Source: Macrocystis pyrifera (Eukaryota > Sar > Phaeophyceae > Laminariales > Laminariaceae). Taken from it: a stretch of 64,000 bases of DNA. Position numbers and translations under genes: made by a program. The notes below the pieces were generated by a model. The model ran no database searches. It was not told the DNA's origin and was given only the letters and a program-made list of their open reading frames with translations. The DNA lies in NCBI GenBank assembly GCA_031763025.1, contig JASSKH010000006.1, forward strand, positions 9,421,691 through 9,485,690, read 5' to 3'. Shown here piece by piece: positions 7,098-48,559 of this stretch. Numbering within the stretch: the stretch's first letter is position 1; each line of letters opens with the position of its first letter.

Positions 7098-7286
7098 AAT
7101 GGCACAGATGCTGACGATTTTATCGATGCCGCCGCAGCCGGTCCTAATGGTACCTACGTCTTCGTAGGAACCACCGGTGGAGACTGGAATCGTACCAATG
7201 CTGGGCTGAATCGTACCGATGCTGGGATGGTGGACTGGATAGCTTTCAAAGTTGATTCCGAGAGGAATATTCTCTGGAAGTGGCAG
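7098..7286 (+). CDS. Exon A: propeller blade 1 (63 codons)
   Basis: Acceptor tctcag, donor caggtgagt, phase 0 at both ends. The blade starts NGTDADDF and ends ILWKWQ. It is 7 codons longer than the usual 56 because a 21-bp segment is duplicated in tandem, giving NRTNAGL followed by NRTDAGM. Both halves carry an N-glycosylation sequon (NRT). It is an internal exon by its acceptor. Confidence 0.85.
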
Positions 7287-10200
7287 GTGAGTATTTGTTC
7301 AGGCATTTTTCCATTTGTTTAGATGATCATACGCAAGCCAAACGATTGATGTTGGACGAACTTACGGACGGCGCAGAAAATACTACCAGGTACGTGCAAG
7401 AGGGATTTTAGTAAAAAAAAGTATAAATTGAACCAGGTACGCTTTTCGGTAGATGCACCAATGAACGCCTTTCTACGAGGTATATCGGGACTAGGCTCCC
7501 ACAAACCAGATTAGCATCAACGGGGTTCTGAATGTCGCTGCTCGATATGAGGCATAACCGGTATTCCGCGGGCACGGTACCATCGCAGCCCCTCGAGATA
7601 TTTGCACGACTACAAGACTCAGCGTGATAGTCACTGGAATGTCTCGGACTCGTTTCTCCCATGCGCGTAGGAGCATTATGCCCCGTGAGATATGTGTGTG
7701 ATTTTAGGTCCAACGTACCTCATTCGGCAAGGTAGATGGTTGGGAGCCAAAATGGTGTCGTTTGCTTGTGTGCTGATAGGCAAGTGAGCAAACGCTAGAT
7801 AACGTGCTGGTCGCTAATTGGGCATCGTTACAGATAACAGTTGTGGGACTCGCAAGGTTTACGGTGCGGGCGCAGAAATTGGTTTTCAAAGTATGGTCCA
7901 TTTTTCCTTACAAAAGGGCAGAGCAATAGCACGCAGAGACGAGGAGGAATACGGTCCAACTTTGTTTCTGGCCGAACGGCATACCCACCACAGCAAAGGT
8001 TCAGGGCACACCTTGGGATGTCTAATTAATACAATTTTGCTGGAAAAACCGGAACACGAAAACTTAAGAACAAAATGTGGACAGGAGTTCTCGCTCTCCG
8101 AGGCGCTAAAGGTATTGTTTTACTGGACTACAGCGCACAACATGTACATTTTGCGATGAAGAATCACGATGTTCGTTCCATCGATCTTTAGATCCACACA
8201 ACAACGAGCTCAAACCGTTTAGAACTTGATGGAACCGAGACTCAAGATCCACAACTCGATTTCAGTAATCCTCCTGCAAAATTACCCAAAACTAAGCCAA
8301 TCGAGGCCTTGGCATTGCCCTGGGTGGGTTCCTCTTCGTCAGCCAATCGAGGCCTTGGCATTGCCCTGGGTGGGTTCCTCTTCGTCATGTGAATCTGTAT
8401 CCCCTCTTATTGTCTGCGTTCACACCAGACGTTTGTAAGAGCTACTTCTCTCTCTCGATGGTATTGTTGGGCTGTATCGAAGTAATTTTTCTTGTACGAA
8501 CGTTGCTAATACTGTGCGCAAACGACTACGACGCGGTACTCCATATTACGTGGTTACTGCATATAGTCCGCTCGCATTACTCATGGCCTTCAGCAACCTA
8601 ATTCACCTTGTATTTCTCTGTACTCCAAACATCGTGCATCTCTGTTTGGCAGAATGGAACGGACAAACACGATATTACCAGGGCTACAGCTATGGCGGAA
8701 GACGAGTCTATCGTCGTGGTAGGGCATCGCACGAACAACCCAGGCTTCCTGGCGACAAAACTCGACGCCGGTGGTACATTCCTGTGGCAGACGGAGGTGA
8801 CATACTGTGTGAATAGCTGCATTTACGGTATGTGTGCGAAGCGGCCTACACGAAGTAAAAGTGCGCCTGTAACGTCCAATCGTGGGAGCAGAGCTGCGCA
8901 AACTCTCCCAAAACGCCTAGTCTCCTGTTTTGACGGTTTCCGACTGCGTGTACTGTCAGTCTTACATTCCTCGCGCGTTTCATGGAACACTGACGTGTGC
9001 TGCATCAGTATCAACCCAAGTGCAAACAACGCCCGCGCCCGACGATGTCTGCACGCAGGACCGGGCACGTATGTACCAGGCATTTATACATGGAAATAAT
9101 CCCTGAACATCGCAGGACCAAAAAAAACTCTTGTCGGCCGTCAATGTGCTGCGTGATATTTTGTTCAACTTCCGGCCACCTTCTGCGAAAAATAATGAGC
9201 ACGTATCACAGGGGCGCCCGGCGGCTGGGATAGCATACACCTCACTATGCCCCCCCCCGCCCCATGATAATACCCCCCCCCCCCCTCGCCCCCGCGGCGT
9301 AGGAACATGTTTTTGTTACCCATTTAGTTTTTCCTCGTGGCATTTAGGTGGCAGATCTTAAGATTACGTAGTCGTGCCCATATCAAGGCCTCTTTCCCCT
9401 GCTGATGTACCTGGTATATGATATGATATTTTATACCGGCTATTTATACTATACAGTTTGTTTCTTGGTCGGGCACTGCATCGTCGTGTGGCAGGGTGTA
9501 CATAGTGGAATGGGTGTGTTGCTGTCGTCCCCTGATTCCCTGTTTGTGTCAAGCAGGGGGGAAGGAAGCTCTCCACCGTCCCCTGATTTACCGGCGGCTG
9601 GTGGGGGGGGGGGGGGGGTGTACTCGATAGGAGAGATGTACTCGATCTCATGCATAGCCGTAGTCGTATGACCATAGACCCTCGCATCCCTACAATGCCG
9701 GGAAAGAGCATGTCGGGTTTTCACCGACCAGGCAGACATTGCTTGCACCAAGCGCGAAGCGCCGTGAGGTGTCCGGCGAGTCGCATGAAGGGTGCGCTGC
9801 ATCCTACAAAGAACCGCTTGTGAGGCGGACCTGCATATGGGTGACAGCTTCAATGAGTTAGTTTAATTTCTGGTGTAGCCACTTGGGCTCCCTACCGTTC
9901 CCTAATGTTCCTTGTATCAAACGGGGGGGACGGCTTTCTACCGCCCCCTGATTTCCTTTGTATTAAGCAGGGAGGGGGGAAAAGGTTGCTTCATTTTTTC
10001 AGGAATATTGTCATGCGTAGAGGGACGGGACTATACCGCTGTCGGGACGGCCGAAGTTGAACAATTCGACGAGATGTGTCGAAAATAAAAAATCCTTCGC
10101 CCCCGCGTACCGTGAATTACTGAACGTGCATTGTTCGTGGAATCAAGATTATGCATTACTATATAACAATTTTACGCAGGTAAACCTACGTACTACTGTA

Positions 10201-14288: not shown

Positions 14289-14332
<44 letters not shown>

Positions 14333-35300: not shown

Positions 35301-38300
35301 TGTCGTGCTTGAGGGGCGACAAAGGCGGAGCGTTTATGTAGGTGGCTCCCACACTATATTTTCTCAGATACCGCAGCCCGCCCCTCACGTTAGTTACCAT
35401 ACGCTTTCGTGTAATGAAGCACGCATAACGTCTGCCACAGTCGGCATGTTTTCTACGTTTCGCTTGGTCCTCGCCCCCTCATCCCATTTGTTCCTCGACT
35501 TTCAGATTTGGGGAAAAATGGGAACGAGAAACCTACTTCTCGGTGCCTCCGTGATAGGGGCACGAGCCATACACTGGCAGATCCCATCACGCTTGATACG
35601 GCACGATGTAGAATTATGTTTGTTATAGCAAGCAATTACAGGCACCTGAGATACGCTCGCCCTCTCGAAGAAACCAGAACGTGGGAACTGATTACGTAAT
35701 CGTACAGCAGCAGTAACAACCTTTCCGTTCGTACAGCAGTAGAGGGATTTATCATCGCAGTAAAGCCTCGTTCGTGGTTACACTACACGCTCAGAAGCCA
35801 CCAAACTAATATCGACTCCACCGGGGTCTCGCGAGGCGCTGAGTTCTTCGTGGTCCCAGTTCGCTCCGACGTCCGACGCCTGCGCCCGGCTCTTTCTGGC
35901 GCGGACCGATGCTCTTGTCGTACTCCACAGTCAGCATTACATGGGACAGGTCCGGATTTCAAGTCCTCCTTTCTTTGCATTTCAGCCAGTTCCGCTCCCG
36001 ACGAAAAGGGAGCGGGGCGGCCGCCGCAGCGATCGCTGCATTCGTCATAATCTCTGTTTTTTACTAGCCTCTTTCTACTTTGTCGTGCTGTTGTAGAGCT
36101 GCGATATCGCTCACGGAGTGATACTCAATCACTATCTCCCCATACAACAACGAGGCTTTCCCGAAAAGGGATCCACCCTGCTGGCGTCCCCTCTTTTCTG
36201 GTCCAGATTACATGTCACCTGAACGCTGGCTTCAAAAACTGGTAAAGCATGCAAGACGGCTACTACTGCTATCTACATCAACGCGTGTGAGATATAGGGT
36301 GATCAAAGTTCATCAATGCAAGTTTGGCACACCGTACCATGGCGCATAGATCAACTGCTATTGCACAGGGTATATACGTGGTATGTCGGACGCAACGTTG
36401 TGTAAGGATTAACTCTCTTGGCTTTGTAAACATGTCAGGAAGTACCTGGAATACCCGAGGTCCGGCTATTACCTGTTGTTAGCGTGCAAGAGTGCTGCTG
36501 TTGTAAAACTGCACAGGAGTTTTGTCATATGACGTCAATCCTCCTCTGCCATGTGGTTCGGGATAAATAGATATGCTCGACTGCTGTACGTACTGATTAC
36601 TTGAGCATTAGGTGACGGCCTTCAGTCCTAATCTGTGCTTTCTCCTGCGGCCGCTCCCATGAGCCATGATAACGACATCCCCAGTACCAAGTAGATCCAT
36701 CGAGTTGATATGTACGTAGTAGTTGTTGTGTTCTACCTGGTATACTTGAAACGCTGTTTGTCGCCTCTTGTCTAGCACGCGAAAGGCATCAACTTCTGTT
36801 CCACTATGCAAATGCGTTGATCGCAACAGTGTCAATATGTACGCTGTTCATGTTGTAATTTTGATGTGAGCTTAGCAAACCTGGAACGCTGGCGTTTACT
36901 CCTGGTTTAGCATTCAAGACTGCTGCTACTGCTGTTGTCATACTGTATATGGTTTGTTTCGGAGATATGATGTGGATCCTTCTCCGGTCTTCGGTTCGAG
37001 ATATATGATATTTCTTTATCTACTGAGTGTTTCAGGGTTCGATGCTGGACTCCCCTGCTGATCTGTGCGTTCTCCTAAAAAGCACTGCAGGCTGTACTTA
37101 GTGTATCCTTGACTACAATTGAGCAGATTGGCATGTCTCGTGCGGCATCGTCCCGCACCGTCGAGCGCCTTCGTCGAAACGCGTCTCTCAGTCTTGAAGA
37201 CATGTCTCCGGATCGGCGTCGTATGGCGTCAGCAGGACACTACCACCCACCTTGACCCTAAATATCTCCTGCCCCTCATTACCGCAGCGTCAACCACAGT
37301 GGGCAGGAAATCACGTCGCCCTGGCCAAAATTACACTTGATGTCCTTGATCGCAGCCTTCAGTACTCGGCGCGGGCCATGGTGGGGTCTAGATGCGTTCC
37401 TTTAAAATATATATAATTATATGGCTTTTTTCAGTACTGAAGCGTTTTGGAACTTCCCCGTTCCCTTTGCGCACTGCTCATCTAACCACTCACGAGCTTA
37501 CATCATGATTTGTTATATTTTCATGTCTTTGTTTCTAGACCGATGTAATTTTATAGACTCTGCTCGTTGTCTCTGATCCACCCCTTTCCGGCATTATCCG
37601 GCCTTAACGCTTTGGTGTAAGAAAAACCAAATGTTTTCAGGAAAGTAAAAGTAGTAGTACGAGTTAGTAGTGTTGCTGTTCCTGTAGTAGTACAGTAATG
37701 TAGCAATATCGTTTCCTTCCAGTATGGGCGCAGTCAGACGTTTAGGTGCCTAGCAGGGACAACGGCCGTGCTGTGCACGACGTACGGATAATTACTGTAT
37801 ACCTGGTACATAACAACGGGGACGTCGATATGACAGCGGTAATGTGTCGTCCAAGGAATTGGTAACCAATGCCCCGGTTTGGCTCTGCATTTGTTTCTGT
37901 TGGGGTTCTATACAGGGCCCTCGATCTCACCTATCGACTGTTCATTGCTACTACTGAGTTATCTCGATGATTTCCAACATGTGTACCCAACCCTAAACAC
38001 CATGACGTAATACCTTAAACGTACTATCGCTTTTGGGTCCCTAAAAGTATCACCCATCGTTTAGGGCATGCGCAGAGCAATGGCGACCATGTGCCTGCCA
38101 TGCCGGGGCTCCCGTTCTCTCTATATATCGATTATATGGTTGCATTCGATGTTGCCATCCTTGGTTGTCCGCGGCAACGTTAAGACACGTCGCAACACGC
38201 ATGCTTCAGGGGTGTAGTCCCCAAGCGACAAAACATGAAGAGTATTGTTCAAACTTCATTCAATCCCAATGTTGCAAACGTCCAGGATGGCACGGCCGGG

Positions 38301-41300
38301 GTAGACATCGCCACAGGAGTTGCGCTGGCAGAAGATGGTTCGGCAGTCCTATCTGGGTCGACCACGGGCCACTGGAACGCGACCAATCTCGGCGAACCTG
38401 ATTTCGCTGCGGTGAAACTAGACGTGAATGGAGCACTATTGTGGAAGTGGCAGGTAACCACGATGTATTCCATACGTAATCGAATTCCACTTTGAATGCG
38501 GTTAGTATCATCCATTGGCGCACTGTGCTTCGTTCAGAAGACTTGTGGGTTGGAAATAAAATTACTTCGGCTGTCGTTGTACTTACAGGGATGGAAACAA
38601 TGCGGAACTCTGGCCTCACACAGACAGCTCTTATGCGTAACAGTCGTCACACCCAAACACTAAATAACCCCACTGCGGATGTTGACGGCACCAACGTGTG
38701 GGTAGCAACCCATCCCTGTGAGTATTGTCAAAACGACCGCGCTCTTGGCGATATTCGATTCGGAACGTTCTTTTTTCCGACAGAAACCATCAAACAGTAT
38801 TTGTAATGAGGCAGGCTTTGACCGAGGCGTTCAGATCCGTCATGAATGGAACCAAGTCCACCAGCCGAACGCATCGTGGAACCTGCAGCATGGATAGTGA
38901 ATTGCACCGCGTTTACACAACAGGTGCAGGCTGCAGTATATTATCCCTGCTTTCGGTGACGGTCATTTCACGAATTCATAGCCCTAAGCAGCAGTTGAGG
39001 GACACATTTCAACCTAAGCACACTTAGATTCCCCTGGATAGACATTTTGCTGCCGTGACGCTTCTGATGACCACGTGGACAGCCGCTACCGCATACATGG
39101 CAACATGTTATGGTTGGCACATTCTCCATACCGACATAGTGGGCAAGGAGTGTCTAGTCATTATATGCTACATAAAATATATAGGTACAGGCAGTGTTGT
39201 TGTCTCACGTATCTGGGTGGTGTCGAATCACTAGCATGTCCGACTCTTACCGAAAGGCGCAAATATATCATGCCGAGCCCGCGTGCGAGGAACACATCGC
39301 ATAGATGATGCCTCGAGCACAATATAAATACCACGTATCCGCGTACCAGCATCGAACACCGCAGCACCAGAAACAGGCTTTCTCTCGTCGGTGCCCTGTC
39401 ACCCCACGCGCTTTTCTCGTTGAGTGGGGAGCATTCTCGCAGAAACCAGCAGAAATTCTACCCTAGAGAAGTTTCTGTTATAAGATTCAGAATTGTGCCT
39501 GTATCCGTTTCGTTCGCACCGGGAGGAAATTACCTGCAGTGCCACACTACCGACTTTGTCGGCAGAACTCGTTGTATGGCGTTTAGCCAGTCTCCCCACC
39601 AAACCCTTGACTCTTGCCTTTCCCGCTTATGTTGTGTCCCTGCCAGGATGGAACATCTTCGACTGACAGTTTCGAAGCCGTAGCCCTAATGGAGGACGGG
39701 TCGTTCATCTTGACTGGGTATTCAGAAGGAAGTTGGAATGGTGCGAACAAGGGTGCGGCTGATTTTGTTGCCCTGAAGATCGATTCCGATGGGAAAGAAA
39801 TATGGAAATGGCAGGTGAGTTTGTTTGCTTCCTTTTTCAAAACCGTTCCTACAGTATGTATTTCTTCACAACCGGGAGTTTTTGTGGTTAGATGCTGGTG
39901 GTTAAAAACAGCACAATCTTCTAAACGACCATCTAGCGTACCAGGCACGTGGAAATTATTCTGCGTAACGGAGATATCCGAACCAAAGATGACAATGACC
40001 GGAACGTGCCTTGAAAACTGTTGTTGGCATCTCACAAAGGTCTCGATTTATTCTTCAATTACCAACATGTTTGCCGTTGCACAACACAAAGCTTTGGTTC
40101 TAGTACATTCGTGCGTCCCACTGAGTGATGCATGGTTCGTGGCATGCGCACCTCTTGCACAAGGTTTGACGGAAGGGAGACCTATTGATAGGAACCTATC
40201 GGTAGTTGGTCATTACCCCCGGCACTACTATGGCGGCGGCGTTCCGGCCGGGGACCGGCTTGTACCTGTTTGCGGTCAATCTTCTGCATATAGCAGGCGG
40301 GTCGGGCCGTGCTGCAGTTTCCGAAAGGACTAAGCACTTAAGTTGCGCCGCTTCAGCTTTCTCTCGTTGACACTCTAGCTAGCTTTATGGATTTCGGTAT
40401 ACGACTTGTTGGAGCAAACCGTTCGAGTCGGAAAACAGGTCTCCATATCGCTAGGTTTAAAATGTGCTAACATCCTGAGGCCCTGAGCCTGCTCGTGTAC
40501 GTATACCTTGGTTAGACTTTTCAGACGCTCATTATTTGGGTGGAAGGCTGATCACGAGCCTAGTCACGATTGCGATTTCCCGAGCGTTTGAAGCAGCCTA
40601 CCTGGTTGCCTTCAATGTCCCGGTTGCGTACGTAGAGCGTCCGCCAGGTCCGTCTTGTCTCGGCTGTTGGTTGTGTCAAGGTTAGGTTGAATTCGCACAT
40701 TATACAATTTATCATGATCATGATTAGGCGGGAGGTACAGCAGATAACATATATGTATTTCATCGTTATTCCCCTTATAGAAGTCATCTGCAGGACATGA
40801 ATGCATGGAGATCAACGTCAATTCAATTCGACACAATGTTAATTTCTGGGGGTCGGTAGAGTGGGTCTACGGCAAGTGATGGCGGGGTAGATGTATCACG
40901 TTGTATTTGGTCTGTTGAATCGATGCGGGTGTTGTACCCAAACAAACGCTTCCTCCGTCGGCGTCCGATAGGATGGAACGGCGGACGCCGACATTTTCTC
41001 CGCCGTATCGGTGGGAACAGCAGGGTCGGTGTTCTTGGCAGGACACACACGCGGAAACTGGAGTGGGGACAACAGTGGTGGTGAGGATTTCGCGGCCTGC
41101 AAGCTTGACGCCGATGGCAACGAAGTATGGAGATGGCAGGTATGCGTTACACAGCAGAAACATAGTACACTCCTTGGCGATTGTCATTTCTTCCACCACA
41201 AGGTGACCGAAATTGTATCGTAGTTCGTTTTGCAAAAAGCCGAACGCAAACGGTTCGGCAGTGCTTCGGCACATGGCGTTTTTTTCAGAGGTGCACCAAG

Positions 41301-44300
41301 AACAACTGTGTAACCAATTGTTGCCCTGCCAATGGTAGCGCGAAGTTAAAAAAAAAAAAAAAAAAATTGCATGAAAAAACAGCCGAAAATATCCTCGTGC
41401 CGCCGCTGTGGGAAAAAAGGGAAAAAATGTTTGATTTTTCCCTTCTTTTTTTTTGTAACGGCTGCAGGCGGCGCAATTTGTATTATCTCGTTGCAAATTG
41501 TCAACACGCTGACAAAAATCAGCTCGTGCGACGATAGATGCTCGATCTCGATATAGACTCAGCCCACGGCCAATCCGCTTGGTGTTGGGCAAGGCCAACG
41601 AGAATAGATGACGGCATCGAAGATAGAAAGTGAATACATGCTATAGGGGGCGAGAGCTTGCCGGCGGCGTCCTGCGGTATCCTCTTAAACCTGTTTTTTT
41701 TTGCTTTTTTGCTATTCGAGGCGGATCGAGAATTTTTGTCTTCTGTTTGGTACACACCAGTGGCTAATTGTTTTTATATCGTACGCCTGGCCAGCGCCCG
41801 CCACACGTCACTGGCCACTGTGTGAAGACGGTGACCCAAGGGTGGGTTGGAGCCCTAACGAGCGCACTCCGTCATAATTCATGACGCAATCGTTGGTTTT
41901 GTCGATCGATGTCTGTCGAGGACTCGGAATCTCGCCGCTTCGAACCGAAGATCGGGGTGAGTCTTTCTCAAGCTGATCTTGGCCCGACATCGGCCCCAGA
42001 TTTGCCTCTTTCGGGCTCTTCTAAACGTGCCCATAGGAAGCGTGTTCTAATTTCTTTTGGCGGATATCTTTGGAATTCAAACTTTTTATTGATACTTCGC
42101 GTTCCCGTTGGCATAGGTCTAAAACCGATGTTCAATATGTTTTGTCATTTATCGTTTTCGTAACTGCCACTTCGTCAGTTGGACACCTTCCTAGCTGTTT
42201 AGTGTCCCCTTGGTGATGAAAATGTGACCATACGATCCTCACGGTACCCCACCAAGCCAAAGCACCGCCATCACTCCCTCGACTTTCTGAATCATACTTT
42301 CGAGTGCTTTGTAAACACGTAAATGTACAACGGCTAATATGTGCAGAAATAATCGCCCACACACGTTGCAATACACCCGTGGTTCTCAAAATCGCGCTAA
42401 TGGAAATTGTTTGCTGCCAATCTTGACAAAGCATACGTTCGGCGTCGCCGACTCTGTCGCAAGCGTTCTGTTCCCGTCTCTACATTGAGAAAAATTACGC
42501 GGCAGGGGACGAAATCGTGGCTTGATATGTTCTGGCCTGGTTGCGCTCGTCAAGTTTGACACGTCCAGTTAGCTTTATACGAACAGTATTCTTCCGGGAC
42601 TCGGGCGGGCTTGCCTCGGTCCGGTTGAGTGAACGAAACGTCTTCAAAGTAATACATAAATATGTGGTAAAAAGTTGATCATGTGAAGTACTCTTAACAG
42701 AAAGGTAGCACACCTACCGTGCTACTCCTCGTTATATGAAAAATCACTACTAACAAGTTTTGTATTGGTCGCCTGTTCTCCTCTCAGAATGGCACAGCCG
42801 TGGAAGACCGTTTGCTAAGTGTCTTGGTAGGCGATAGTGAGTCTGTGGTTATGGCCGGGCATACGATGGGTGATTGGGAAATCGTCAATGCGGCCGGTGG
42901 TGATTTCGCAGCCGTCAAGCTGGATGAGCACGGTACTCATATCTGGTCATGGCAGGTGACTCGTCTTCCTATTTTGTGACATACTTTCTGCATTGACGAT
43001 CTGTTGACTGAATAGATAGTTTCCATATCCAAACGACACGGTGGTGAAACTCGCAAATAACGATGCGTGCAACGAAACGGGTTGCACACTTTGTCCAAAG
43101 CCTTTCTGAATGACGGGACTCCTTAACTAAGTAGCTACTCAAAATCTTTGAAATACGGTAAGGTATGTTCAATATCCCTCCCGTACGGCAGTGGATCATC
43201 GGATGAAGTCTGTAGATTATTTCAAAATCATTAATTTGGGCGAGGTGTACAGGTCCCCAACTGAGGGCCCTCATAAAACGATGTGGTAAATCCTACCATA
43301 GCACGCGTGAAACACCTACCGCCTTCGACTACTTTAACTACGACTATACGCGGCCACTTTCCCTCCCGCAGGCCGGAACGGACGTTGACGACGGTGCGCA
43401 TGCCATCGTTCCGGGCGGATCTAACTCCGAGTTTCTCCTGGCTGGATTCACCTTGGGGACGTGGTTCTCCGATACCAAAGGCAACCGGGATTTCGCTGCA
43501 GTGATGCTCAACACGAGCATCTGCACAAGCATTGAGCCTACGCCAACTCCGACAGGGACCCCGACGCCAGGAAATTCCCCACCACCGTCCTCATCACCAT
43601 TCGTTGAAACACCTTTGCCGTCTGGACAAGCTTCAGAACCCACGTCAACACCAACGCTCCACGGCTCTCCATCGTCAGCTCAACCTACATCATTTCCCAC
43701 CCTGGCGACCAACCCCGCTGTCGACATCACGTTGATGGTGATCGTAGTCGTGCTATCTTGTATCGTTGGCCTGGTTGGGGTTGCGACCGCGGGGTGGCTT
43801 TATCGCAGACATCGTCGACAACACAATACGCACACGGATTCACCCTCCTCCGTTCCGGGTACTGGTTCTGTCGTCGCAAGGTCCAACGTCTCCTTCTCCC
43901 ATGTCGTCATTGCGCCTGGTGATATTAATCCTTCACGAAACGATCGTTGTCCGCCAAACGAAGAAGGCGCTCGGTTCTCGAACGTTCAGGAGCGTGAGAC
44001 CATGCCTCGGGCTGTGTCGTCAGAGTCAATCGGTACCGCACTCTATGAACCAGACATGAAGGAGGCGAATGCAGCCGGTGCGTCAACCGCGCTCAACAAC
44101 TCCTTGCGGCGATTTGGTGGCACACATGCAAATGATGGCAGTCACCAAGAACAAACACCCTCCGTGTCTGGAACTATCGTAGCGCTCCCCGGTTCGACCA
44201 TGGCTGAAATTTATAACAGAGAAGTATCTCCAGGAGGCAGTCGTCCAAATCCAGCACGTGGTCTTGGTATTCGTCACGCGGTGATTTGTGCAGCGCAGGA

Positions 44301-47300
44301 GGTATCGCTGGCATCCCAAATTCCCGGCGTGTCCGAGGTGGCGGGGCTGGTGATCGTCCTCATGAACCTAATGAAGGACAACGCCGAACTCACGGGTGCG
44401 GTTGAAAGCACTGTCAAGCGTTGCCGCTCCGTTTTGCTTCTAGTCAAGCGCGCAGCCGATGTGCTTGATGAGGTAGGTTTCAGCCTGCCTATTAGGTGGG
44501 AAGCGATGTCGTTCGATCACCTCGCTTAGCGTCGTTTTTCTTCATTTTCCCGAGAAAAAAAATACTTGAACGAAGCATATAGGCCGATCCGACCACGTAC
44601 GAGTTCAGGCATATCGTGTTATGAACCCATTGCTACGCTACGTAAAAAGCACGACATTTAATGCAAATGCACGAAAGATTCTGGGTGGTAGTCTGGGTGG
44701 TAGGGCGGATTGTTTCCAATACGTGTTTGCTCGGTATTCCCGGTACATAGCGAGGGAGTACGCGTGCAAGTAAGTCACAAGTACCAACGTTTTGGGTTTC
44801 TGGCGTGTATCAGCCGCCACGGTCAGCGTTGGGGCTGAGTGTTTAATTTAACTTTAAAATCAACTAACCGTACGAAGTATATACAGTGAACGGTTTGACA
44901 GGACTACCTGTCAACGCCACTCCATAGCAAACGAGAAAGGTTCAACTTCGTGATATAACCACCTCTTGGCCGTATCGGCCGACGGTGCTGATTCAAAAAT
45001 TTGCCTTGGAACGCGATGTCGAGTTATTCACTCTCACTATACATGTTTGTCTGTAACAAGCAAAGTTCGTCGCACGGCCTGCTGTCGAAAGGGTTAGTTG
45101 GTTGGAACTATTGTTTGTGTTTCACTGATCGTCAGTGGTTGACGAAGATGTCTGGGTTTAACGATGAAAGCAATCGACGCTCAGGCTATGTCTCCACCAG
45201 ACGGCAAGCCGCGTTTATATCATTGTTTTATCGAAAACAGCCTTTGACGAAGGTATATTTGTGGTTTGATGTACAACCTGACTAACGTAAACGAGGTCTG
45301 TAAACTTCACATTTTTCCTTGTCGTACGCACGCTGCGAAAATACGTGATACCCGATGGACGCTCTAGGTTGACAACGCTATCGACCAAGCGCATAGTGCC
45401 TTGATCGAGGATGTGCGCGATGCCGTCGGTGACCTGATTGATGTCATAAAAACGTACAGGAGCAAGGGGAAAATCTCTCAAGTTGTGAGGTCGACTTTGT
45501 TCAAACGGCGCAAGGAAGAGGCAGAGGTGGTCATCGAAGCTGCCACCTCTCGACTGCACGTAAGCTGCAAAATGACGAGCCGCACCTACGTCGTTAGAGT
45601 AGTTTTGACGCTGAACCGCTCACTGGTGTATGGCCTTCTTCATCAGGAAGGCCTTCGCGAAGCAGACTTGAAATAGGGTATTGCAGCCACCCGACACATG
45701 GCACTGAAAATTGCCTCTGGTGGTTTGTTTGGGGGCCTAACGCTAACACTTATGCAGCCGCAGCCCTAATCCCAGACATGTGCTCAGCAGCTGCGATTTT
45801 GTTAGTTGTGTGTACTGTAGAGGCCATTCATCGTCCTGACGGGGATCAGGATGTATTACTTACCTAGCATAGTCATGTGGAGCGTGAAGTGGCTGCTACA
45901 GTACTGCAAGTACGGAGCACTGACGACGTGGTTTACCCGTGAATTGTGTAATAAAATCCCAGTTTTCTTCGTACGTGTCAAACGCCTCGTGATGGTTCGA
46001 ACGCCCAGGGGCGTGACGTTGCCCATTATTCTCACGAGACACGTTGATGACAACCCAAACGGTCGTGAACGAGTTTTTTTTAAGCACGGTATATTGTGTC
46101 ATGTGCGCTCCAGTTCGGCTTGCAAGTACAGGCTGGGGACTATTTGAAGAAGCTCGGGCAAGACGTGCGGGCGCATCTGTATCCCCAGCTCGAAGAAACC
46201 GAGGTAAGAATGGCGGTCGGTCTTGGGTCGAGAGCCGATACCTGGATGGTCGTCATTTAGTTTGACAAACCACTAATATGTTCAAAATTTAAATTTGTGT
46301 GGACTATTGATAAAAACCGCAGCGCAAATTCTATGCGCCGATGACGTTGGACGTGTACTGATTTACAGTTATCGTTTCAGTGTGAAGCACGTCGGACTGA
46401 AGTTCAAACAGTGTGTCTAGATCTCATTTTTTGCCGCGTGTTGCCTGTCGCGCTACTAACAAGTCTCCAAATATCGGATTGTGGCTCGCAGGGAATTTTT
46501 CTTTGCGAGGCTCGACGCCTGCGACGCCAACGCAATCTTGATACCGTTGAGATCCCTGAAAGTCATGTGACCATAACCGACGAGTTGCTGGGCAAGGGCG
46601 GATTTGGCGCTGTTTACATCGCAGACTACAACGGTCGGAACGCTGCAGCCAAGGTGAGTAGCTCATATATCTTCAGTTTACACGGAGCAGAAAAGATGGG
46701 ACACCAATAATTGAGAAGTGCACACAACCTCATACTAGAAGGTGAAAAATCCCTGCCAGCTGCCCGCGAAGGGTCAATGTTCTCACATTCCATTCAGATG
46801 ATTTTCGCCTGGGTCGGAATGTATTGCTGTTTGTTAATTTGGTACGACTGTCATACAAACGCGCAGTTCGCATAATATTGTGAAGTCTCGCCATTTCATG
46901 TCTGGCCCTTGCACGTATGTCAACGTTTCAGGTTGTGCAAGTGCAGCACGACCTCGGGAGACTCAGTACCCTCAAGGAGGAGACGGCATGCGGAGTCGAG
47001 CAACATGGCCCGGAGGTGGGTGTCCAACGCGCCCGCCGTAAAGCGTTTTGGAGAGAGTTACAAGCAATGATCCGCCTGAGGAGCCCGCACACGGTGAATG
47101 TGTACGGAGCCATAACGTCTCGTGAAGATCGTCTTGTCCTTGTCATGGAGCTCCTGCCGGGCGGAGACCTTCGCGCGCTGTTGAAGGATGCGATAGAACC
47201 GCTTGCCGAGGCGCGCGCTCAGGGCATTGTCAGAGATATCTGCGCGGGAATGGCGTTCTTGCATCACAAGGAGACAGTGCATGGAGACTTGAAGTCGCCC

Positions 47301-48559
47301 AACGTGCTGTTAGATGGATGTGGAAGGGCTAAGGTGACGCCATGGTGTACGCTACGTTAGGCGTACGGTCGACCCAAGTGCCCGATATTTTTAGGCTCGA
47401 AGAGCTCAGCGCTTCACCCAATACCCAAACAATTCAAACAATGTTCACTCTGCTGTTCAAATGTCAGCGAGGCTTAATGGTATGGAAATATAATCAAATT
47501 GAACTATACCTTTCAATTTGTCAGTCGAAGAGCCCTGTCAGAAACAATCTGTTTGGCCATTGCTACTTCTATCGTAGAACGGGTGCGACATCTAGAGTAA
47601 ATACGTTGAAGTGAGGGCTAGAGTGATTACGCTGTTGGCGCTCGTTTCGACAATACAGTATTTGGGGGGGTCTGAGAGTTAACCCACTTGTTGCACGTTG
47701 TGAACTTGTTTAAATGAGCTATCAACATCGTCGCAAAACGTGTGAACGATATCTTGATCAAGTCAATCGCTTCGGTATCCCTATCTTTCATTATTCAGAT
47801 TGGGGATTTCGGGACCTCCAGATGGCCACAGCTCACGAATTCCACGGGCCTGATCACTCACACCACCCACACTGGCCACAGCACACAAATGAGTTTTGCG
47901 TGGGCTGCTCCAGAGGTGAGGAGTATGCGTACTGTTGTCAAGAGTTAGTGGTTTGACGTCGAACGCTGCTGTTAAAGGCCGCCGTAGATGAGTCCAAACA
48001 CGCGCTGCTTCGGCTAGCTTGTTTGATGCTCAAAATTTACCGTCTAGGAGACAGATGTTTTGCAAGCTACCGTGAGCTGCCGATACAGATGCCTGTTACT
48101 GCCTAACGAGGTACGTCCCAGCAGTACCAGTGTGCCTTTTTATTAGTCCGCCTTTGTGTTTCTTGGTCTGTCCTTCGCGTTGGTAAGGGTGAATACTTGT
48201 TGCAAATATTCGATTCAGCCTTTTTCCGCTGTCGCGTCGTGAGGGACGTTTCCCACACCTTTGCTCCGTCTATTTATTCTCTGACTCGTTAGGTCCTTGA
48301 GTCCAAGGGCACGTCCTTCGCGAGCGACGTATACAGCTTCGGAATTGTTGTGTGGGAAGTGCTCTCCAGGAACATTCCGTGGGCGGGCGAAGCTTGTCCT
48401 AGAGACATTTACGCGCGCGTGGTATTCAAAGGAGATCGACCGGAAATACCTTCTGACGCGTCAGCTGTGATGGCCCGAATCCTAGTCGCCTGTTGGGCTG
48501 GGGAGCCGGAGACGCGTCCAACATTCAGCAGTATCGTGAAGTGGCTCAATGGCCAGTAG
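7098..48559 (+). CDS. Receptor-type TKL kinase: SBBP-like propeller, membrane span, MLKL-like helical bundle, kinase (5' incomplete)
   Basis: Thirteen exons spliced at phase 0 give about 1,142 residues in the window (fewer if the longest form of exon J is not used). The order is seven propeller units of about 56 residues, a Pro/Thr/Ser stalk, a 24-residue membrane span (43732-43803), a linker of about 150 residues, a helical bundle (44260 to 46203) and a kinase domain (46567-48556). Kinase motifs are GKGGFGAVY, AAAK, FWREL, HGDLKSPN, GDFG, AAPE and SDVYSFG. Repeat units follow D/N-GT-x-x-D, a GS(x)2-3G turn, DFAAVKLD and WKWQ, as in SBBP beta-propeller repeats. This predicts a type I surface receptor kinase. 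The N-terminus and signal peptide are not found. Known: TKL kinases are numerous in stramenopiles and brown algae have their own receptor kinases. Inferred: the ligand is extracellular and the helical bundle may act at the membrane. Confidence 0.85.
7287..8652 (+). other. Intron A-B (1,366 bp)
   Basis: GTGAGT donor and ggcag acceptor. It contains an exact 46-bp tandem duplication at 8295-8386. I see no other feature. Confidence 0.7.
8295..8386. repeat. Exact 46-bp tandem duplication
   Basis: Unit agccaatcgaggccttggca and onward to cttcgtc occupies 8295-8340 and is repeated without change at 8341-8386. The identity suggests a recent slippage or repair event inside the intron. Confidence 0.9.
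8653..8796 (+). CDS. Exon B: propeller blade 2 (48 codons)
   Basis: Acceptor ttggcag, donor gaggtgaca, phase 0. The blade begins NGTDKHDI and carries FLATKLD and FLWQTE. It is 8 codons shorter than the 56-codon standard. The loop between the second and third strands is reduced and the terminal WKWQ is altered to WQTE. Confidence 0.8.
10391..10455. repeat. Short direct duplication
   Basis: Two near-identical copies of acgcaagtanatacagttgg, about 41 bases apart, lie inside the large intron. No function is evident. Confidence 0.7.
13525..16260. repeat. CAG-rich non-coding repeat, copy 1, left part
   Basis: Matches the unsplit copy at 51140-55475 in the same order. Shared landmarks are gcagcactacaaa with a following gagcagcagtcgatcga, then the CAG-rich stretch, cgacctactccgtgagg, a pol III B-box-like gagttcgagtccc near 14508, and the block at 15075-15380 that parallels 53490-53780. 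Long open frames here (for example on the minus strand at 14200-14658) come from the triplet runs and are not taken as genes. The repeat is interrupted at 16261 by the DIRS-like element and resumes at 26601. Confidence 0.7.
14291..14331. repeat. CAG trinucleotide microsatellite
   Basis: About a dozen uninterrupted CAG (read as AGC/GCA in other phases) units inside the CAG-rich repeat. Similar shorter runs occur at 15586-15600, 51470-51550 and 53130-53156, always in the same repeat family. Confidence 0.9.
16261..16721 (-). repeat. DIRS-like element 3' repeats B1-A2-B2
   Basis: B2 is 16261-16321, A2 is 16497-16655 and B1 is 16654-16712. B copies share taacatagcgtcgtaggtta and gggatcaatgaggcctc. 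A2 matches A1 at the other end of the element. About 175 bases of further sequence (16322-16496) lie between B2 and A2 and recur in the smaller relative at 34035-36211. Confidence 0.85.
17011..18248 (-). mobile_element. Tyrosine recombinase region of the DIRS-like element
   Basis: Encodes the integration enzyme that in this order replaces a DDE integrase. Near 18190-18130 there is a zinc-ribbon-like CPRC...CQSC pair. A helical core-binding region follows. The catalytic part has MKRGFELS (first Arg), HSFRVGG (the H-x-x-R box) and SRYVG with the likely nucleophilic Tyr near 17.0 kb. The order and spacing fit the DIRS family of tyrosine recombinases. It lies 3' of the RNase H region, as expected. 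The region is treated as a fossil and its state is not analysed further. Confidence 0.8.
18349..20318 (-). mobile_element. Reverse transcriptase and RNase H region of the DIRS-like element
   Basis: The reverse transcriptase part (about 20310-19600) has RLVIDARALN and GSLDDRSGF upstream of the YIDD active-site box in VLAYIDDAWYC. The RNase H part (about 19240-18800) has ASDASSNQWGG, KEMFALLE, MDVDNRSV and ADNQSADAI, the acidic positions expected for the family. DIRS elements carry RT-RNase H between Gag and the recombinase, which is the order here. Confidence 0.85.
22117..22505. repeat. Three-unit tandem repeat inside the DIRS-like element
   Basis: Units of about 127-138 bp begin near 22117, 22244 and 22382. 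Each contains gtaaaataccatagtacacg and tcctacccgtgtcgatcgcc. It lies between the RT and Gag-like regions. No coding role is apparent. Confidence 0.85.
22563..23766 (-). mobile_element. Gag-like region with zinc knuckle
   Basis: The end nearest RT (22877-22563) carries CLNCKLAGHRQAAC, a C-x2-C-x4-H-x4-C zinc knuckle, preceded by a further CRNC pair. Upstream is Gly/Pro-rich and charged sequence of the kind found in Gag-like nucleic-acid-binding proteins. In this order of elements the protein packages the RNA. The assignment rests on the knuckle and on its place upstream of RT. Confidence 0.6.
23501..23698. repeat. Two-unit direct repeat (99-bp period)
   Basis: ttcgtgtcagcatgatttcg starts at 23501 and again at 23600, each followed by ggggttgaaccgtg. 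Further downstream phrases such as ggggattcaaccc look related. It lies inside the DIRS-like element. Confidence 0.8.
24121..24960. repeat. Two-unit direct repeat (438-bp period)
   Basis: Unit 1 is 24121-24558 and unit 2 is 24559 to about 24960. Shared phrases are cgggcgcgcccgggccgtcg, gccgtgatacagcagtccc and ttgctgtngccgt. It lies inside the 5' half of the DIRS-like element and explains part of its unusual length. Confidence 0.85.
25600..26436 (-). mobile_element. First open frame of the DIRS-like element, Gag-like N-terminal part
   Basis: A 278-codon minus-strand frame beginning just inside repeat A1. The protein is Ala/Val/Thr-rich with a middle low-complexity segment and no enzyme motif. 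Its place, first in the element and next to the terminal repeat, fits a Gag-like structural protein. No closer homology is recognised. Confidence 0.55.
26441..26600 (-). repeat. DIRS-like element 5' repeat A1
   Basis: About 160 bp, nearly identical to A2 at 16497-16655 and in the same orientation. It includes tagcctctttctactttgtc and ends cgagattact. It marks the 5' end of the element. Confidence 0.85.
26601..27285. repeat. CAG-rich non-coding repeat, copy 1, right part
   Basis: Resumes the repeat interrupted at 16261. It parallels 53711-55475 of the unsplit copy: aaaatag then cgaatcgg, ccccagcccata, gtcggttgacggcacatttt, ttggccacgaga-like sequence near 26980, and acgctgaggagcg near 27250. 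A small tandem duplication of gacgcagtcgggatcgggga lies at 27127-27170. This shows the DIRS-like element inserted into a pre-existing repeat. Confidence 0.7.
27560..27874. mobile_element. Degenerate MITE relic (same family as 34807-35297)
   Basis: The left arm and the middle of the foldback MITE at 34807-35297 can be followed here (cgcgatttact, cggtagactc, agagctttctt, gtttctccag), and the right tip ends caataggtggtc. Most of the right arm is gone. The left tip is diverged (ggccgagtatt). A run of 19 C occurs at 27604-27622. Confidence 0.6.
27875..30255. other. No gene seen
   Basis: Intronic sequence without an exon or a repeat that I can define. Open frames are short and have no recognisable motifs. 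Confidence 0.4.
30256..31375. repeat. Hairpin-bearing repeat family, four copies
   Basis: Two longer units, about 30611-30890 and 31095-31375, share cgggtgagg, gagctcct, gtgagga, ctcagaaaa and gggtgaacct, 488 bases apart. Shorter relatives lie at 30256-30285 and 30370-30440. Each contains an inverted repeat around a six-base loop: gttcct/aggaac at 30261-30278, a weaker ttcct/agggg pair near 30390, gctcct/aggagc at 30819-30836, and ctcct/aggag at 31307-31322. A diverged fifth copy lies at 43070-43300. Confidence 0.6.
31376..34034. other. No gene seen
   Basis: Intronic sequence. 31780-32040 is GC-rich and 32705-32870 has a self-complementary cggcccggcctggcc-type stretch. I see no exon or RNA gene that I can support. 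Confidence 0.4.
34035..36211 (-). mobile_element. Internally deleted, non-autonomous relative of the DIRS-like element, 2.2 kb
   Basis: Has the same end structure as the 10.3-kb element: B2 near 34035-34095, A2 near 34271-34434, B1 near 34434-34493 and A1 near 36050-36211. Inside it keeps only short stretches that match the large element (34620-34720 with 16850-16940, and 35400-35610 with 20440-20650). All coding regions are absent, so it could only move with help from a full-length copy. It is more diverged from the large element than A1 is from A2 there, so it belongs to a different subfamily. A foldback MITE is inserted inside it. Confidence 0.8.
34807..35297. mobile_element. Foldback MITE, Harbinger-like, 491 bp
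   Basis: The tips are perfect inverted repeats beginning gaccaactattatgggaaa, and the inverted similarity continues imperfectly for roughly 170-190 bases into each arm, so a single strand could fold into a long hairpin. It is flanked by TTA on both sides (34804-34806 and 35298-35300). A 3-bp TWA duplication is typical of PIF/Harbinger elements. No transposase is encoded. It interrupts the deleted DIRS relative and is therefore younger than it. Confidence 0.8.
36212..38285. other. No gene seen
   Basis: Last part of the large intron. There is no exon or repeat that I can define before the acceptor of exon C at 38285. Confidence 0.4.
38286..38453 (+). CDS. Exon C: propeller blade 3 (56 codons)
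   Basis: Acceptor cgtccag, donor caggtaacc, phase 0. Begins DGTAGVDI and includes EDGSAVLSGSTTGHW, DFAAVKLDVNG and LLWKWQ. This is the standard 56-residue SBBP-like unit and carries an NAT sequon. Confidence 0.88.
38454..39646 (+). other. Intron C-D (1,193 bp)
   Basis: A gggatgg phrase at 38588 after a cag resembles an exon start, but the frame closes quickly and no blade motifs follow. Nothing else is seen. Confidence 0.6.
39647..39814 (+). CDS. Exon D: propeller blade 4 (56 codons)
   Basis: Acceptor tgccag, donor caggtgagt, phase 0. Begins DGTSSTDS and includes EDGSFILTGYSEGSW, DFVALKIDSDG and IWKWQ. Confidence 0.88.
39815..40971 (+). other. Intron D-E (1,157 bp)
   Basis: No feature is seen apart from the pyrimidine-rich tract before the atag acceptor. 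Confidence 0.6.
40972..41139 (+). CDS. Exon E: propeller blade 5 (56 codons)
   Basis: Acceptor cgatag (a TAG rather than CAG acceptor), donor caggtatgc, phase 0. Begins DGTADADI and includes FLAGHTRGNW, DFAACKLDADG and VWRWQ. It has an NWS sequon. Length and phase match the other standard blades. Confidence 0.87.
41140..42787 (+). other. Intron E-F (1,648 bp)
   Basis: Contains an A run near 41347-41366 and several T-rich stretches, which generate spurious Lys- or Phe-rich frames. No exon or repeat is supported. Confidence 0.6.
42788..42955 (+). CDS. Exon F: propeller blade 6 (56 codons)
   Basis: Acceptor ctctcag, donor caggtgact, phase 0. Begins NGTAVEDR and includes VVMAGHTMGDW, DFAAVKLDEHG and IWSWQ. 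The exon is too short to stand out as an open frame alone, but its length, phase and motifs match its neighbours exactly. Confidence 0.87.
43070..43300. repeat. Diverged fifth copy of the hairpin-bearing repeat
   Basis: Shares ctgaatgacggga with 31152, a gggcgaggtgtac phrase like the cgggtgagg of the copies near 30.8 and 31.3 kb, and a hairpin-like ggtccc...gggccc at 43252-43270. It spans most of intron F-G and stops shortly before the acceptor of exon G. Confidence 0.45.
43372..44472 (+). CDS. Exon G: blade 7, stalk, membrane span, linker and first helices of the MLKL-like region
   Basis: 367 codons, acceptor cgcag, donor gaggtaggt, phase 0. Blade 7 begins AGTDVDDG and has FLLAGFTLGTW and DFAAVML, but it lacks the closing WKWQ strand, as expected if the propeller is closed by a strand from the N-terminus. 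A Pro/Thr/Ser stalk (43522-43731) suits O-glycosylation. The membrane span LMVIVVVLSCIVGLVGVATA continues to WLY (43732-43803) and is followed by basic RRHRR, the stop-transfer signal of a type I protein. A polar linker runs to about 44259. From 44260, amphipathic helices with CAAQEV, IPGVSEVAGLVIVLMNL and KRCRSVLLLVKRAADVLDE resemble the MLKL N-terminal domain. Confidence 0.87.
43732..43803 (+). other. Transmembrane segment of the receptor kinase
   Basis: Twenty-four hydrophobic residues from LMVIVVVL to GWLY with basic RRHRR on the cytosolic side. It is the only clear membrane span in the placed exons. It puts the propeller outside and the kinase inside the cell. Confidence 0.88.
44473..45367 (+). 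other. Intron G-H (895 bp)
   Basis: GTAGGT donor and ctctag acceptor. I see no other feature. Confidence 0.65.
45368..45559 (+). CDS. Exon H: middle helices of the MLKL-like bundle (64 codons)
   Basis: Acceptor ctctag, donor cacgtaagc, phase 0. The segment has VDNAIDQAHSALIEDVRDAV and, further on, DLIDVIKTYRSKGKI, LFKRRKEEAEVVIEA and TSRLH. A helix with a conserved-looking Tyr and basic turn, then a basic kink, then another helix is the pattern of MLKL_NTD and HeLo-like four-helix bundles. I judge this from pattern alone; a profile search would decide. Confidence 0.8.
45560..46131 (+). other. Intron H-I (572 bp)
   Basis: GTAAGC donor and gtacag acceptor. No other feature. Confidence 0.65.
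46132..46203 (+). CDS. Exon I: last helix of the bundle (24 codons)
   Basis: Acceptor gtacag, donor gaggtaaga, phase 0. It encodes AGDYLKKLGQDVRAHLYPQL and then EETE, an amphipathic helix that would close the bundle. It is very short but keeps the frame on both sides. Confidence 0.7.
46381..46653 (+). CDS. Exon J: link to the kinase and glycine-rich loop (91 codons, or split)
   Basis: Acceptor tttcag, donor aaggtgagt, phase 0. The certain part is 46492-46653, with VTITDELLGKGGFGAVYIAD (Gly-rich loop) and NAAAK, whose Lys is the ATP-binding VAIK-type residue (codon 46651-46653). The first part is open but odd and hydrophobic. Two other readings keep the frame: an exon starting at 46492 after tcgcag, with a tactaac branch-point-like site upstream, or a 30-base exon 46381-46410 with a gtgtgt donor followed by an 81-base intron. 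Confidence 0.75.
46932..47333 (+). CDS. Exon K: kinase N-lobe and catalytic loop (134 codons)
   Basis: Acceptor tttcag, donor aaggtgacg, phase 0. Contains the alpha-C helix FWRELQAMIRL with the salt-bridge Glu, the hinge VMELLPGGDL, and the catalytic loop VHGDLKSPNVLLD. The Asp codon is 47286-47288 and the Asn is 47301-47303. The Arg of the usual HRD is Gly, so this is a non-RD type kinase. A loop between beta-3 and alpha-C is longer than in most kinases. Confidence 0.88.
47334..47798 (+). other. Intron K-L (465 bp)
   Basis: GTGACG donor and attcag acceptor. No other feature. Confidence 0.65.
47799..47915 (+). CDS. Exon L: activation segment (39 codons)
   Basis: Acceptor attcag, donor gaggtgagg, phase 0. 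Runs from IGDFGTSRW to FAWAAPE. The DFG Asp codon is 47805-47807, and the activation loop is rich in Thr and Ser, giving several possible phosphorylation sites. Confidence 0.87.
48293..48559 (+). CDS. Exon M: kinase C-lobe and stop (88 codons plus TAG)
   Basis: Acceptor cgttag, phase 0, stop TAG at 48557-48559. Contains SDVYSFGIVVWEVLSRNIPW, then GDRPEIP, CWAGEPETRPTF, where the Arg is the conserved C-lobe residue. The protein ends 11 residues after this motif (WLNGQ), so there is no C-terminal extension. Confidence 0.88.
   Translation, partial: VLESKGTSFASDVYSFGIVVWEVLSRNIPWAGEACPRDIYARVVFKGDRPEIPSDASAVMARILVACWAGEPETRPTFSSIVKWLNGQ

What the first reader, a model, noticed from the sequence alone, without database searches (positions are those of the whole stretch)
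7098..48559. A receptor joining an SBBP-like propeller, an MLKL-like helical bundle and a TKL kinase in one chain
Seen: seven blade-like units, a stalk, one membrane span, an amphipathic helical region with KRCRSVLLLVKRA, TYRSKGKI and LFKRRKEE, then a kinase with the standard motifs. Known: in MLKL the N-terminal four-helix bundle disrupts membranes when the (pseudo)kinase is activated, and HeLo-type domains in fungi have similar death roles. Inferred: here the bundle is tethered next to the membrane by a receptor span, so ligand sensing could be linked directly to a membrane-acting domain. I know of no described receptor with this order.
Basis: partly seen in the sequence, partly recalled or inferred. 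Interest (0 to 1): 0.85.

Follow-up and report, generated by a model that had tools for sequence, protein, structure and literature searches.

The report
Beta-propeller receptor kinase with helical bundle
This stretch of a eukaryotic genome most likely encodes a cell-surface receptor with a propeller-shaped sensor outside and an enzyme (kinase) inside, joined by a helical module that may belong to the family of cell-death bundles, though that last point is only weakly supported so far.

Summary
The sequence features are real. Thirteen open exons (A-M, 7098-48559, + strand) have GT-AG borders and join in phase 0. Seven encode one propeller blade each; a profile made without exon F finds F at 6.8e-17. 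The ectodomain matches the CylK propeller (1.8e-36) and, below cut-off, an SBBP lipoprotein model (3.1e-30). A Ser/Thr/Pro stalk, one membrane span, a linker, a helical region and a TKL-type kinase with a non-RD HGD loop follow. The MLKL part is only partly supported: Pfam MLKL_N does not match, though it matches a human control, and pairwise comparison with MLKL gave nothing. The spliced helical region matches Rx_N, a plant NLR coiled-coil family, at 1.3e-4 to 5.8e-5: below cut-off, yet better than 20 of 20 pattern-preserving shuffles (best 0.0022), and only across the G-H splice. The 5' exon is missing and B-C is a 29.5-kb gap, so one transcript is inferred. Best reading: a TKL receptor kinase with a probable HeLo/CC-like bundle, a new variant of a known kind.

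The parts
7098..7286 (+). Exon A: propeller blade 1 (63 aa), phase 0
   Evidence: HMM E 6.1e-25 (in training set), splice AG/GT
8653..8796 (+). Exon B: propeller blade 2 (48 aa, shortened, lacks the GxWNxxN loop)
   Evidence: HMM E 2.6e-18 (in training set)
38286..38453 (+). Exon C: propeller blade 3 (56 aa)
   Evidence: HMM E 1.2e-27 (in training set)
39647..39814 (+). Exon D: propeller blade 4 (56 aa)
   Evidence: HMM E 1.4e-28 (in training set)
40972..41139 (+). Exon E: propeller blade 5 (56 aa)
   Evidence: HMM E 3.8e-28 (in training set)
42788..42955 (+). Exon F: propeller blade 6 (56 aa)
   Evidence: HMM E 5.7e-17 (domain 6.8e-17), not in the training set: independent hit
43372..44472 (+). 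Exon G: blade 7 (no last strand), Ser/Thr/Pro stalk, membrane span, juxtamembrane linker, helices alpha0-alpha2 of the bundle
   Evidence: HMM E 4.7e-21 for the blade (in training set); exon model
43726..43782 (+). Core of the single predicted membrane span (ITLMVIVVVLSCIVGLVGV)
   Evidence: Kyte-Doolittle 2.97 over 19 residues, highest of the protein; place
44332..44379 (+). Helix alpha1 of the bundle, hydrophobic (SEVAGLVIVLMNLMKD)
   Evidence: AF2 single-sequence helix, low confidence (pLDDT about 68-72); part of the second most hydrophobic stretch of the protein (1.67)
44383..44469 (+). Helix alpha2 with KRCRSVLLLVKRA
   Evidence: AF2 single-sequence helix, pLDDT about 65-77
45368..45559 (+). 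Exon H: helices alpha3 and alpha4 (hairpin)
   Evidence: AF2 single-sequence, pLDDT 89.6, helices 2-32 and 35-63; Rx_N match spans the G-H junction
46132..46203 (+). Exon I: possible brace between bundle and kinase
   Evidence: exon model; helicity not tested
46492..46653 (+). Exon J: start of kinase N-lobe (GKGGFG loop, AAAK)
   Evidence: PF07714 8.4e-51 for the joined exons J-M
46932..47333 (+). Exon K: kinase alphaC to catalytic loop (HGDLKSPN), with an insertion before alphaC
47799..47915 (+). Exon L: kinase GDFG to APE
48293..48559 (+). Exon M: kinase C-lobe and stop codon
8797..38285 (+). 29,489-bp inferred intron between blades 2 and 3, holding retroelement sequence

Best explanation
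A seven-bladed SBBP/CylK-type propeller, one phase-0 exon per blade, is held outside the cell on a Ser/Thr/Pro-rich stalk and a single membrane span. Inside, a long linker leads to a helical bundle of the HeLo/CC type, a short brace and a non-RD TKL kinase that keeps its catalytic Lys, Asp, Asn and DFG. Most likely mechanism: ligand (for example a wall or microbial polysaccharide) clusters the propellers, the kinases are brought together and become active, and phosphorylation of the brace or bundle releases the bundle from the kinase. The freed bundle then either recruits partners and oligomerises or inserts its hydrophobic alpha1 into the same membrane. Shown: exons, blades, span, kinase motifs. 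Weakly shown: bundle identity. Inferred: one transcript, ligand type, clustering, release, any membrane action.
For: 13 of 13 exons open, AG/GT-bounded and in phase 0. Independent blade F hit. CylK propeller E 1.8e-36, NF047494 3.1e-30 and TIGR02608 2.4e-8 (both below their curated cut-offs). Kinase PF07714 8.4e-51, CTR1 5.8e-39. No other kinase or bundle piece in the window's ORFs at E up to 1 apart from one 0.51 hit on the minus strand. Rx_N 1.3e-4 (184 aa) / 5.8e-5 (135 aa) only when G and H are joined; G alone and H alone give no Rx_N. 0 of 20 pattern-preserving shuffles of the 135-aa form match Rx_N, best shuffle match of any family 0.0022; 0 of 2 exact reversed forms match it. Helical single-sequence models. 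Seven blades on one strand fit one closed propeller (inference). Papers (passages read) place HeLo/HELL, the MLKL 4HB and plant CC/CCR in one structural superfamily and stress a hydrophobic helix 1 (PMC10197012, PMC12881547, PMC10951266), and associate non-RD kinases with innate immunity (PMC8463890).
Against: Rx_N is below its curated cut-off (22.5-23.6 against 27.7 bits). No MLKL_N and no family named HeLo, SesA or Goodbye in the answers (the tool's filters drop most matches above 0.1). Pairwise scores to human MLKL, MLA10, ZAR1 and NRC3 are no better than shuffles (330, 334, 276 and 60 of 500 shuffles score at least as high), and in a three-sequence CC profile nine of 500 shuffles outscore the real sequence. 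One shuffle matched SesA at 0.051, so the hydrophobic pattern alone can mimic this superfamily weakly. No PDB relative of the bundle by sequence (best E 0.068). alpha4 is not amphipathic by its moment. 5' exon missing; long B-C intron; no RNA evidence. Word-based scans found no relative of the bundle or kinase in viral contigs, of the kinase in genome contigs, or of the propeller in either; the bundle was not scanned in genome contigs.
Confidence: 0.5

Rival explanations
1. An ordinary stramenopile-type TKL receptor kinase whose juxtamembrane helices are only a dimerisation or autoregulatory coiled coil, with no HeLo/CC ancestry and no membrane or cell-death role; signalling is by the kinase alone.
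For: TKL kinases with membrane spans are abundant in at least one stramenopile (99 of 354 P. infestans kinases, with one to nine spans each, all TKL; PMC3019232, passages). The Rx_N match is sub-threshold, MLKL_N is absent, pairwise tests are negative. Exon H models as a plain helical hairpin.
Against: The Rx_N match beats 20 of 20 pattern-preserving shuffles and needs the splice junction. The order bundle, brace, kinase with a hydrophobic first helix is that of MLKL and Pm13 (passages).
Confidence: 0.33
2. Two neighbouring genes: blades A and B belong to another (possibly broken) propeller gene upstream, and the receptor kinase starts at or before exon C.
For: 29,489 bp separate B from C and hold retroelement sequence. 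Blade B is short and ends WQTE instead of WxWQ. No first exon found.
Against: A and B are open, in phase 0 and on the same strand, and their addition makes exactly seven blades. No second kinase or bundle piece lies in the window (one noise-level minus-strand hit, E 0.51).
Confidence: 0.15
3. The reader's version, a stronger form of the best explanation: a tethered MLKL executioner whose four-helix bundle perforates the membrane directly when the receptor is engaged.
For: Bundle and span in one chain, hydrophobic alpha1, kinase in cis; HeLo/4HB domains act on membranes in animals, plants and fungi (passages).
Against: No MLKL_N match; the kinase keeps its catalytic residues, unlike the animal MLKL pseudokinase; about 156 residues separate the span core from the first predicted bundle helix, so closeness to the membrane is loose; nothing functional is known.
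Confidence: 0.15

Closest known systems
CylK propeller (PDB 7fh6, 7ron) and SBBP-repeat propeller proteins of bacteria (NF047494, Gloeothece WP_013334454.1)
   Same: Blade sequence (GT..D....A...DG...aG.t.G.....n.G..D...kld..G...W..q). CylK's propeller is, as I recall, also seven-bladed
   Different: The bacterial relatives are, by annotation or recollection, lipoproteins, sorted surface proteins or enzymes without span and kinase; here each blade is one exon and the propeller is the ectodomain of a kinase
Plant and animal MLKL (Pm13, AtMLKL, human MLKL)
   Same: Order helical bundle, brace, kinase
   Different: No MLKL_N profile match; propeller, stalk and membrane span in front; catalytic residues kept (animal MLKL is a pseudokinase); bundle identity only by a weak Rx_N match
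Plant CNL coiled-coil domains (Rx_N; MLA10, ZAR1) and fungal HeLo/HELL domains
   Same: Weak profile match to Rx_N covering positions 6-84 of 93; hydrophobic first helix
   Different: Not at an N-terminus, no NLR, sub-threshold score, no pairwise signal
Stramenopile TKL receptor kinases (oomycete subfamilies 2-4; brown-algal LRR receptor kinases)
   Same: Ectodomain, membrane span, kinase (TKL in the oomycete case)
   Different: Propeller instead of LRR, helical bundle between span and kinase
Brown-algal receptor kinases with beta-propeller ectodomain (Denoeud et al. 2024, Cell; recalled, not held and not read)
   Same: Propeller, span, kinase, if my recollection is right
   Different: I do not know whether a helical bundle was described there

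Membership tests
SBBP/CylK-type beta-propeller | Tandem blades with the SBBP/CylK consensus, here seven | tested here: met
   Seven blade exons; CylK E 1.8e-36
SBBP/CylK-type beta-propeller | Score over the curated cut-off of an SBBP-repeat model | tested here: not met
   NF047494 105.3 bits against 400 (an equivalog cut-off), TIGR02608 33.7 against 76.5; no SBBP family in the Pfam answer
MLKL | MLKL_N (PF22215) domain | tested here: not met
   Not in the answers at a limit of E 10; human MLKL control 2.2e-61
MLKL | Bundle-brace-kinase order | tested here: inconclusive
   Order present in the exon model; brace helices not modelled
MLKL (animal) | Pseudokinase | tested here: not met
   Gly loop, Lys, catalytic Asp, Asn, DFG and APE are present
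HeLo/HELL/CC four-helix bundle superfamily | Profile match over the curated cut-off | tested here: not met
   Rx_N 22.5 and 23.6 bits against 27.7; above 20 of 20 shuffles
HeLo/HELL/CC four-helix bundle superfamily | Four-helix bundle fold | tested here: inconclusive
HeLo/HELL/CC four-helix bundle superfamily | Hydrophobic, membrane-prone helix 1 | tested here: met
   Part of the second most hydrophobic stretch of the protein, 1.67; hydropathy only
HeLo/HELL/CC four-helix bundle superfamily | Cytotoxic or membrane-permeabilising activity | not testable with these tools
   needs expression
TKL receptor kinase | TKL-type kinase domain over cut-off | tested here: met
   PF07714 173.2 bits against 23.1; best PDB match CTR1; the TKL label rests on that match, no tree was made
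TKL receptor kinase | Single membrane span | tested here: met
   One stretch of 2.97, next 1.67; hydropathy only
TKL receptor kinase | Signal peptide | tested here: inconclusive
   Only weak candidates upstream, best placed 6935-6991
Brown-algal beta-propeller receptor kinases (recalled) | Propeller ectodomain, span, kinase in brown algae | not testable with these tools
   Paper not held; no eukaryote collection; organism of the window unknown

The most novel reading that the evidence does not exclude
A cell-surface receptor that carries its own executioner: a HeLo/CC-type four-helix bundle sits in cis between the membrane span and an active kinase, so that ligand binding by a bacterial-type propeller could open a pore or channel in the same membrane without a separate NLR or MLKL. 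If the host is a brown alga, this would be in a lineage for which my searches listed no described MLKL-type pathway.
Probability: 0.2. Interest if true: 0.82.

Novelty: new variant of a known kind. Interest (0 to 1): 0.52.

Why it matters
As far as I know, surface receptor kinases and HeLo-type bundles are usually separate proteins. If the bundle is confirmed, this gene links outside sensing to a possible membrane-acting domain in one chain and gives an entry to cell death and immunity outside animals, plants and fungi. The exon-per-blade layout, all in phase 0, would also let blades be shuffled or skipped. Brown algae are reported to shuffle and alternatively splice LRR exons of ROCO genes, there in phase 2 (PMC11378527, section 11 read).

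Tried and rejected
Strict MLKL membership: rejected after the Pfam control and pairwise tests.

First exon: a scan for a signal-peptide exon upstream of 7098 gave seven weak candidates, and a scan of 1-43400 for a phase-0 exon ending in a blade-closing strand gave two unconvincing matches. 6935-6991 (MFFSETVLSEIIGSLLLTA) would join in phase to exon A but lacks the closing strand, so I do not claim it.

Relatives: none by pattern scan plus tblastn for the bundle and the propeller in viral contigs, the propeller and the kinase in genome contigs and the kinase in viral contigs. These scans need near-exact 8-residue words and the collections hold no eukaryotes as such, so they say nothing about brown algae. 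tblastn in plasmids found 14 bacterial records with propeller relatives, all under 60% identity (12 listed, 22-31%).

Structure: only contiguous window pieces were folded (collected in 43 and 39). I did not search fold libraries with them, because a helical hairpin or a pLDDT 65 fragment would match anything helical.

Papers: ten searches. None of the titles and abstract starts listed names a receptor with propeller, span, HeLo-type bundle and kinase. The library lacks most subscription papers and the 2024 Cell paper, so this is not proof of absence.

A slip found on checking: the reversed control was typed by hand and differs from the exact reverse at three places near one end. I repeated it with exact reversed sequences of both lengths; no Rx_N match either, best family 0.091. 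My notebook entry speaks of a four-sequence coiled-coil profile; it held three.

Full report
What was checked. The finding says that one chain joins an SBBP-like propeller, an MLKL-like bundle and a TKL kinase between 7098 and 48559. I rebuilt the exons from the DNA. Thirteen open pieces, A to M, are each a multiple of three long, are preceded by AG in 13 of 13 cases and followed by GT in 12 of 12 internal cases, and join in one frame to 1105 residues and a stop at 48559. I chose the borders by eye from the peptides, so the phase agreement is consistent with the model rather than an independent test.

Ectodomain. An HMM made from six blades (A-E and G) finds seven ORFs in the window at E 5.7e-17 or better; the next is at 0.21. 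Blade F was not in the model, so it is an independent hit. The joined seven blades match CylK in the PDB (1.8e-36, three stretches), the NCBIfam SBBP lipoprotein model (3.1e-30) and the delta-60 repeat (2.4e-8), both of the latter below those models' curated cut-offs. That CylK's matched part is a seven-bladed propeller is recalled. Pfam gave no meaningful match. tblastn finds propeller relatives in 14 bacterial plasmid records, two of the 12 listed annotated as SBBP repeat proteins. So 'SBBP-like' is right. Blade A has seven extra residues and blade B lacks the loop and ends differently. Blade G has no last strand. In a closed propeller that strand would come from the N-terminus (general knowledge of propellers), so at least one upstream coding exon is missing from the model; a scan gave no convincing one.

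Stalk and span. After blade G come 64 residues of which 40 are Ser, Thr or Pro, then one strong hydrophobic stretch (2.97), then basic residues (RRHRRQ), which fits a type I span. Nine N-glycosylation sequons lie in the ectodomain model.

Helical region. 156 residues lie between the span core and the first predicted helix. Single-sequence AlphaFold2 on the contiguous pieces gives helices at 18-38, 45-60 and 62-90 of the 44200-44472 piece (mean pLDDT 64.7, low) and a hairpin of two long helices for exon H (89.6). Pfam on the joined sequence gives Rx_N at 1.3e-4 (184 aa) and 5.8e-5 (135 aa), below the curated cut-off of 27.7 bits, along positions 6-83 or 6-84 of 93 and across the G-H splice; G alone and H alone give no Rx_N. 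Exact reversed forms of both lengths give no Rx_N, best family 0.091. Twenty shuffles of the 135-aa form that keep the hydrophobic pattern give no Rx_N and no match better than 0.0022; one gives SesA at 0.051. Against this reading: MLKL_N does not appear while a human MLKL control matches it at 2.2e-61. Smith-Waterman scores to MLKL, MLA10, ZAR1 and NRC3 are matched or beaten by 330, 334, 276 and 60 of 500 shuffles, and in a profile of three coiled-coil sequences nine of 500 shuffles score higher. The PDB has no sequence relative (best E 0.068). By a simple moment alpha2 and alpha3 are amphipathic (0.37, 0.41) and alpha4 is not (0.02). I therefore put the bundle's membership in the HeLo/CC/MLKL superfamily at a little over one half, and count membership in MLKL proper as not met. 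As a yardstick, the human MLKL control itself matches another Pfam family, DUF7792, at 4.2e-5, also below cut-off; I recall that this family is related, which no call tested.

Kinase. Exons J-M give PF07714 at 8.4e-51 over positions 4-256 of 258 and CTR1 as best PDB match, hence TKL-type; no tree was made. The glycine loop (GKGGFG), Lys (AAAK), catalytic Asp and Asn (HGDLKSPN), GDFG and APE are present. The Arg before the catalytic Asp is Gly: a non-RD kinase. [quoted passage not shown] This is a hint, not proof.

One gene or two. All exons share strand and phase and the blades add up to seven. A search of the window's ORFs with the kinase and the bundle finds only the exons of this gene (one further hit, E 0.51, minus strand). 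The B-C gap is 29,489 bp and holds a retroelement: direct repeats of 161 nt at 16496 and 26440, 97% alike, and a weak reverse transcriptase match on the minus strand (E 8.4e-4, below cut-off). Insertion would explain part of the length. RNA evidence is needed.

Comparison with the known. Stramenopile TKL receptor kinases are known: in P. infestans 99 of 354 kinases have predicted spans, all TKL (PMC3019232, passages), and brown algae have LRR receptor kinases (PMC8307928, passages). I recall that Denoeud et al. 2024 (Cell) reported brown-algal receptor kinases with beta-propeller ectodomains; the paper is not held and I read nothing of it. If right, propeller-span-kinase is known and the bundle is the possible news. 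Bundle-brace-kinase is the plan of MLKL and of Pm13 from Aegilops longissima, whose modelled bundle is reported to superimpose on animal MLKL, AtMLKL and the NRG1 CCR domain (PMC10951266, passages). Fungal NLRs with a HeLo domain fused on are called an 'all-in-one' architecture (PMC12881547, passages); a receptor kinase with such a domain would be a parallel case. One repeat per exon with shuffling is reported for brown-algal LRR-ROCO genes, there in phase 2 (PMC11378527: outline and abstract, section 11 and passages).

Organism.

Verdict. A real and well-formed receptor-kinase gene, ordinary in its kinase and well supported in its propeller, with a helical module whose HeLo/CC nature is suggested but not shown. 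New variant of a known kind.

Noticed in passing
16244-26600, minus strand ORFs at about 17011-20318: Retroelement inside the B-C intron: 161-nt direct repeats at 16496 and 26440 (97% alike), a weak reverse-transcriptase match (RVT_1, 8.4e-4, below cut-off) and long minus-strand ORFs that look to me like RNase H and a tyrosine recombinase, as in DIRS-type elements (that label is recalled; Pfam did not call them).
   Followed up: partly
34018-34490 and 36054-36214: Further diverged copies (65-92%) of the repeats found at 16244-16715, so probably a second, degraded element of the same family.
   Followed up: no
61162-63916, minus strand: Copia-like pol fragments: one of three ORFs scanned matches the retroviral SH3-like domain at 1e-4 (below cut-off); the other two gave no Pfam match, and the Copia label is recalled.
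   Followed up: partly
22077-22467: Three tandem copies of a 125-nt unit (75-94% alike to the middle one) spaced 128 and 138 nt.
   Followed up: no
46932-47333: The kinase has about 24 residues more than CTR1 between the ATP-binding lysine region and helix alphaC (29 against 5 unaligned residues), and its catalytic loop is HGD (non-RD).
   Followed up: partly
8653-8796: Blade B is eight residues shorter than C-F, lacks the GxWNxxNxG loop and ends WQTE; it may mark a functional edge of the propeller or an eroding exon.
   Followed up: no
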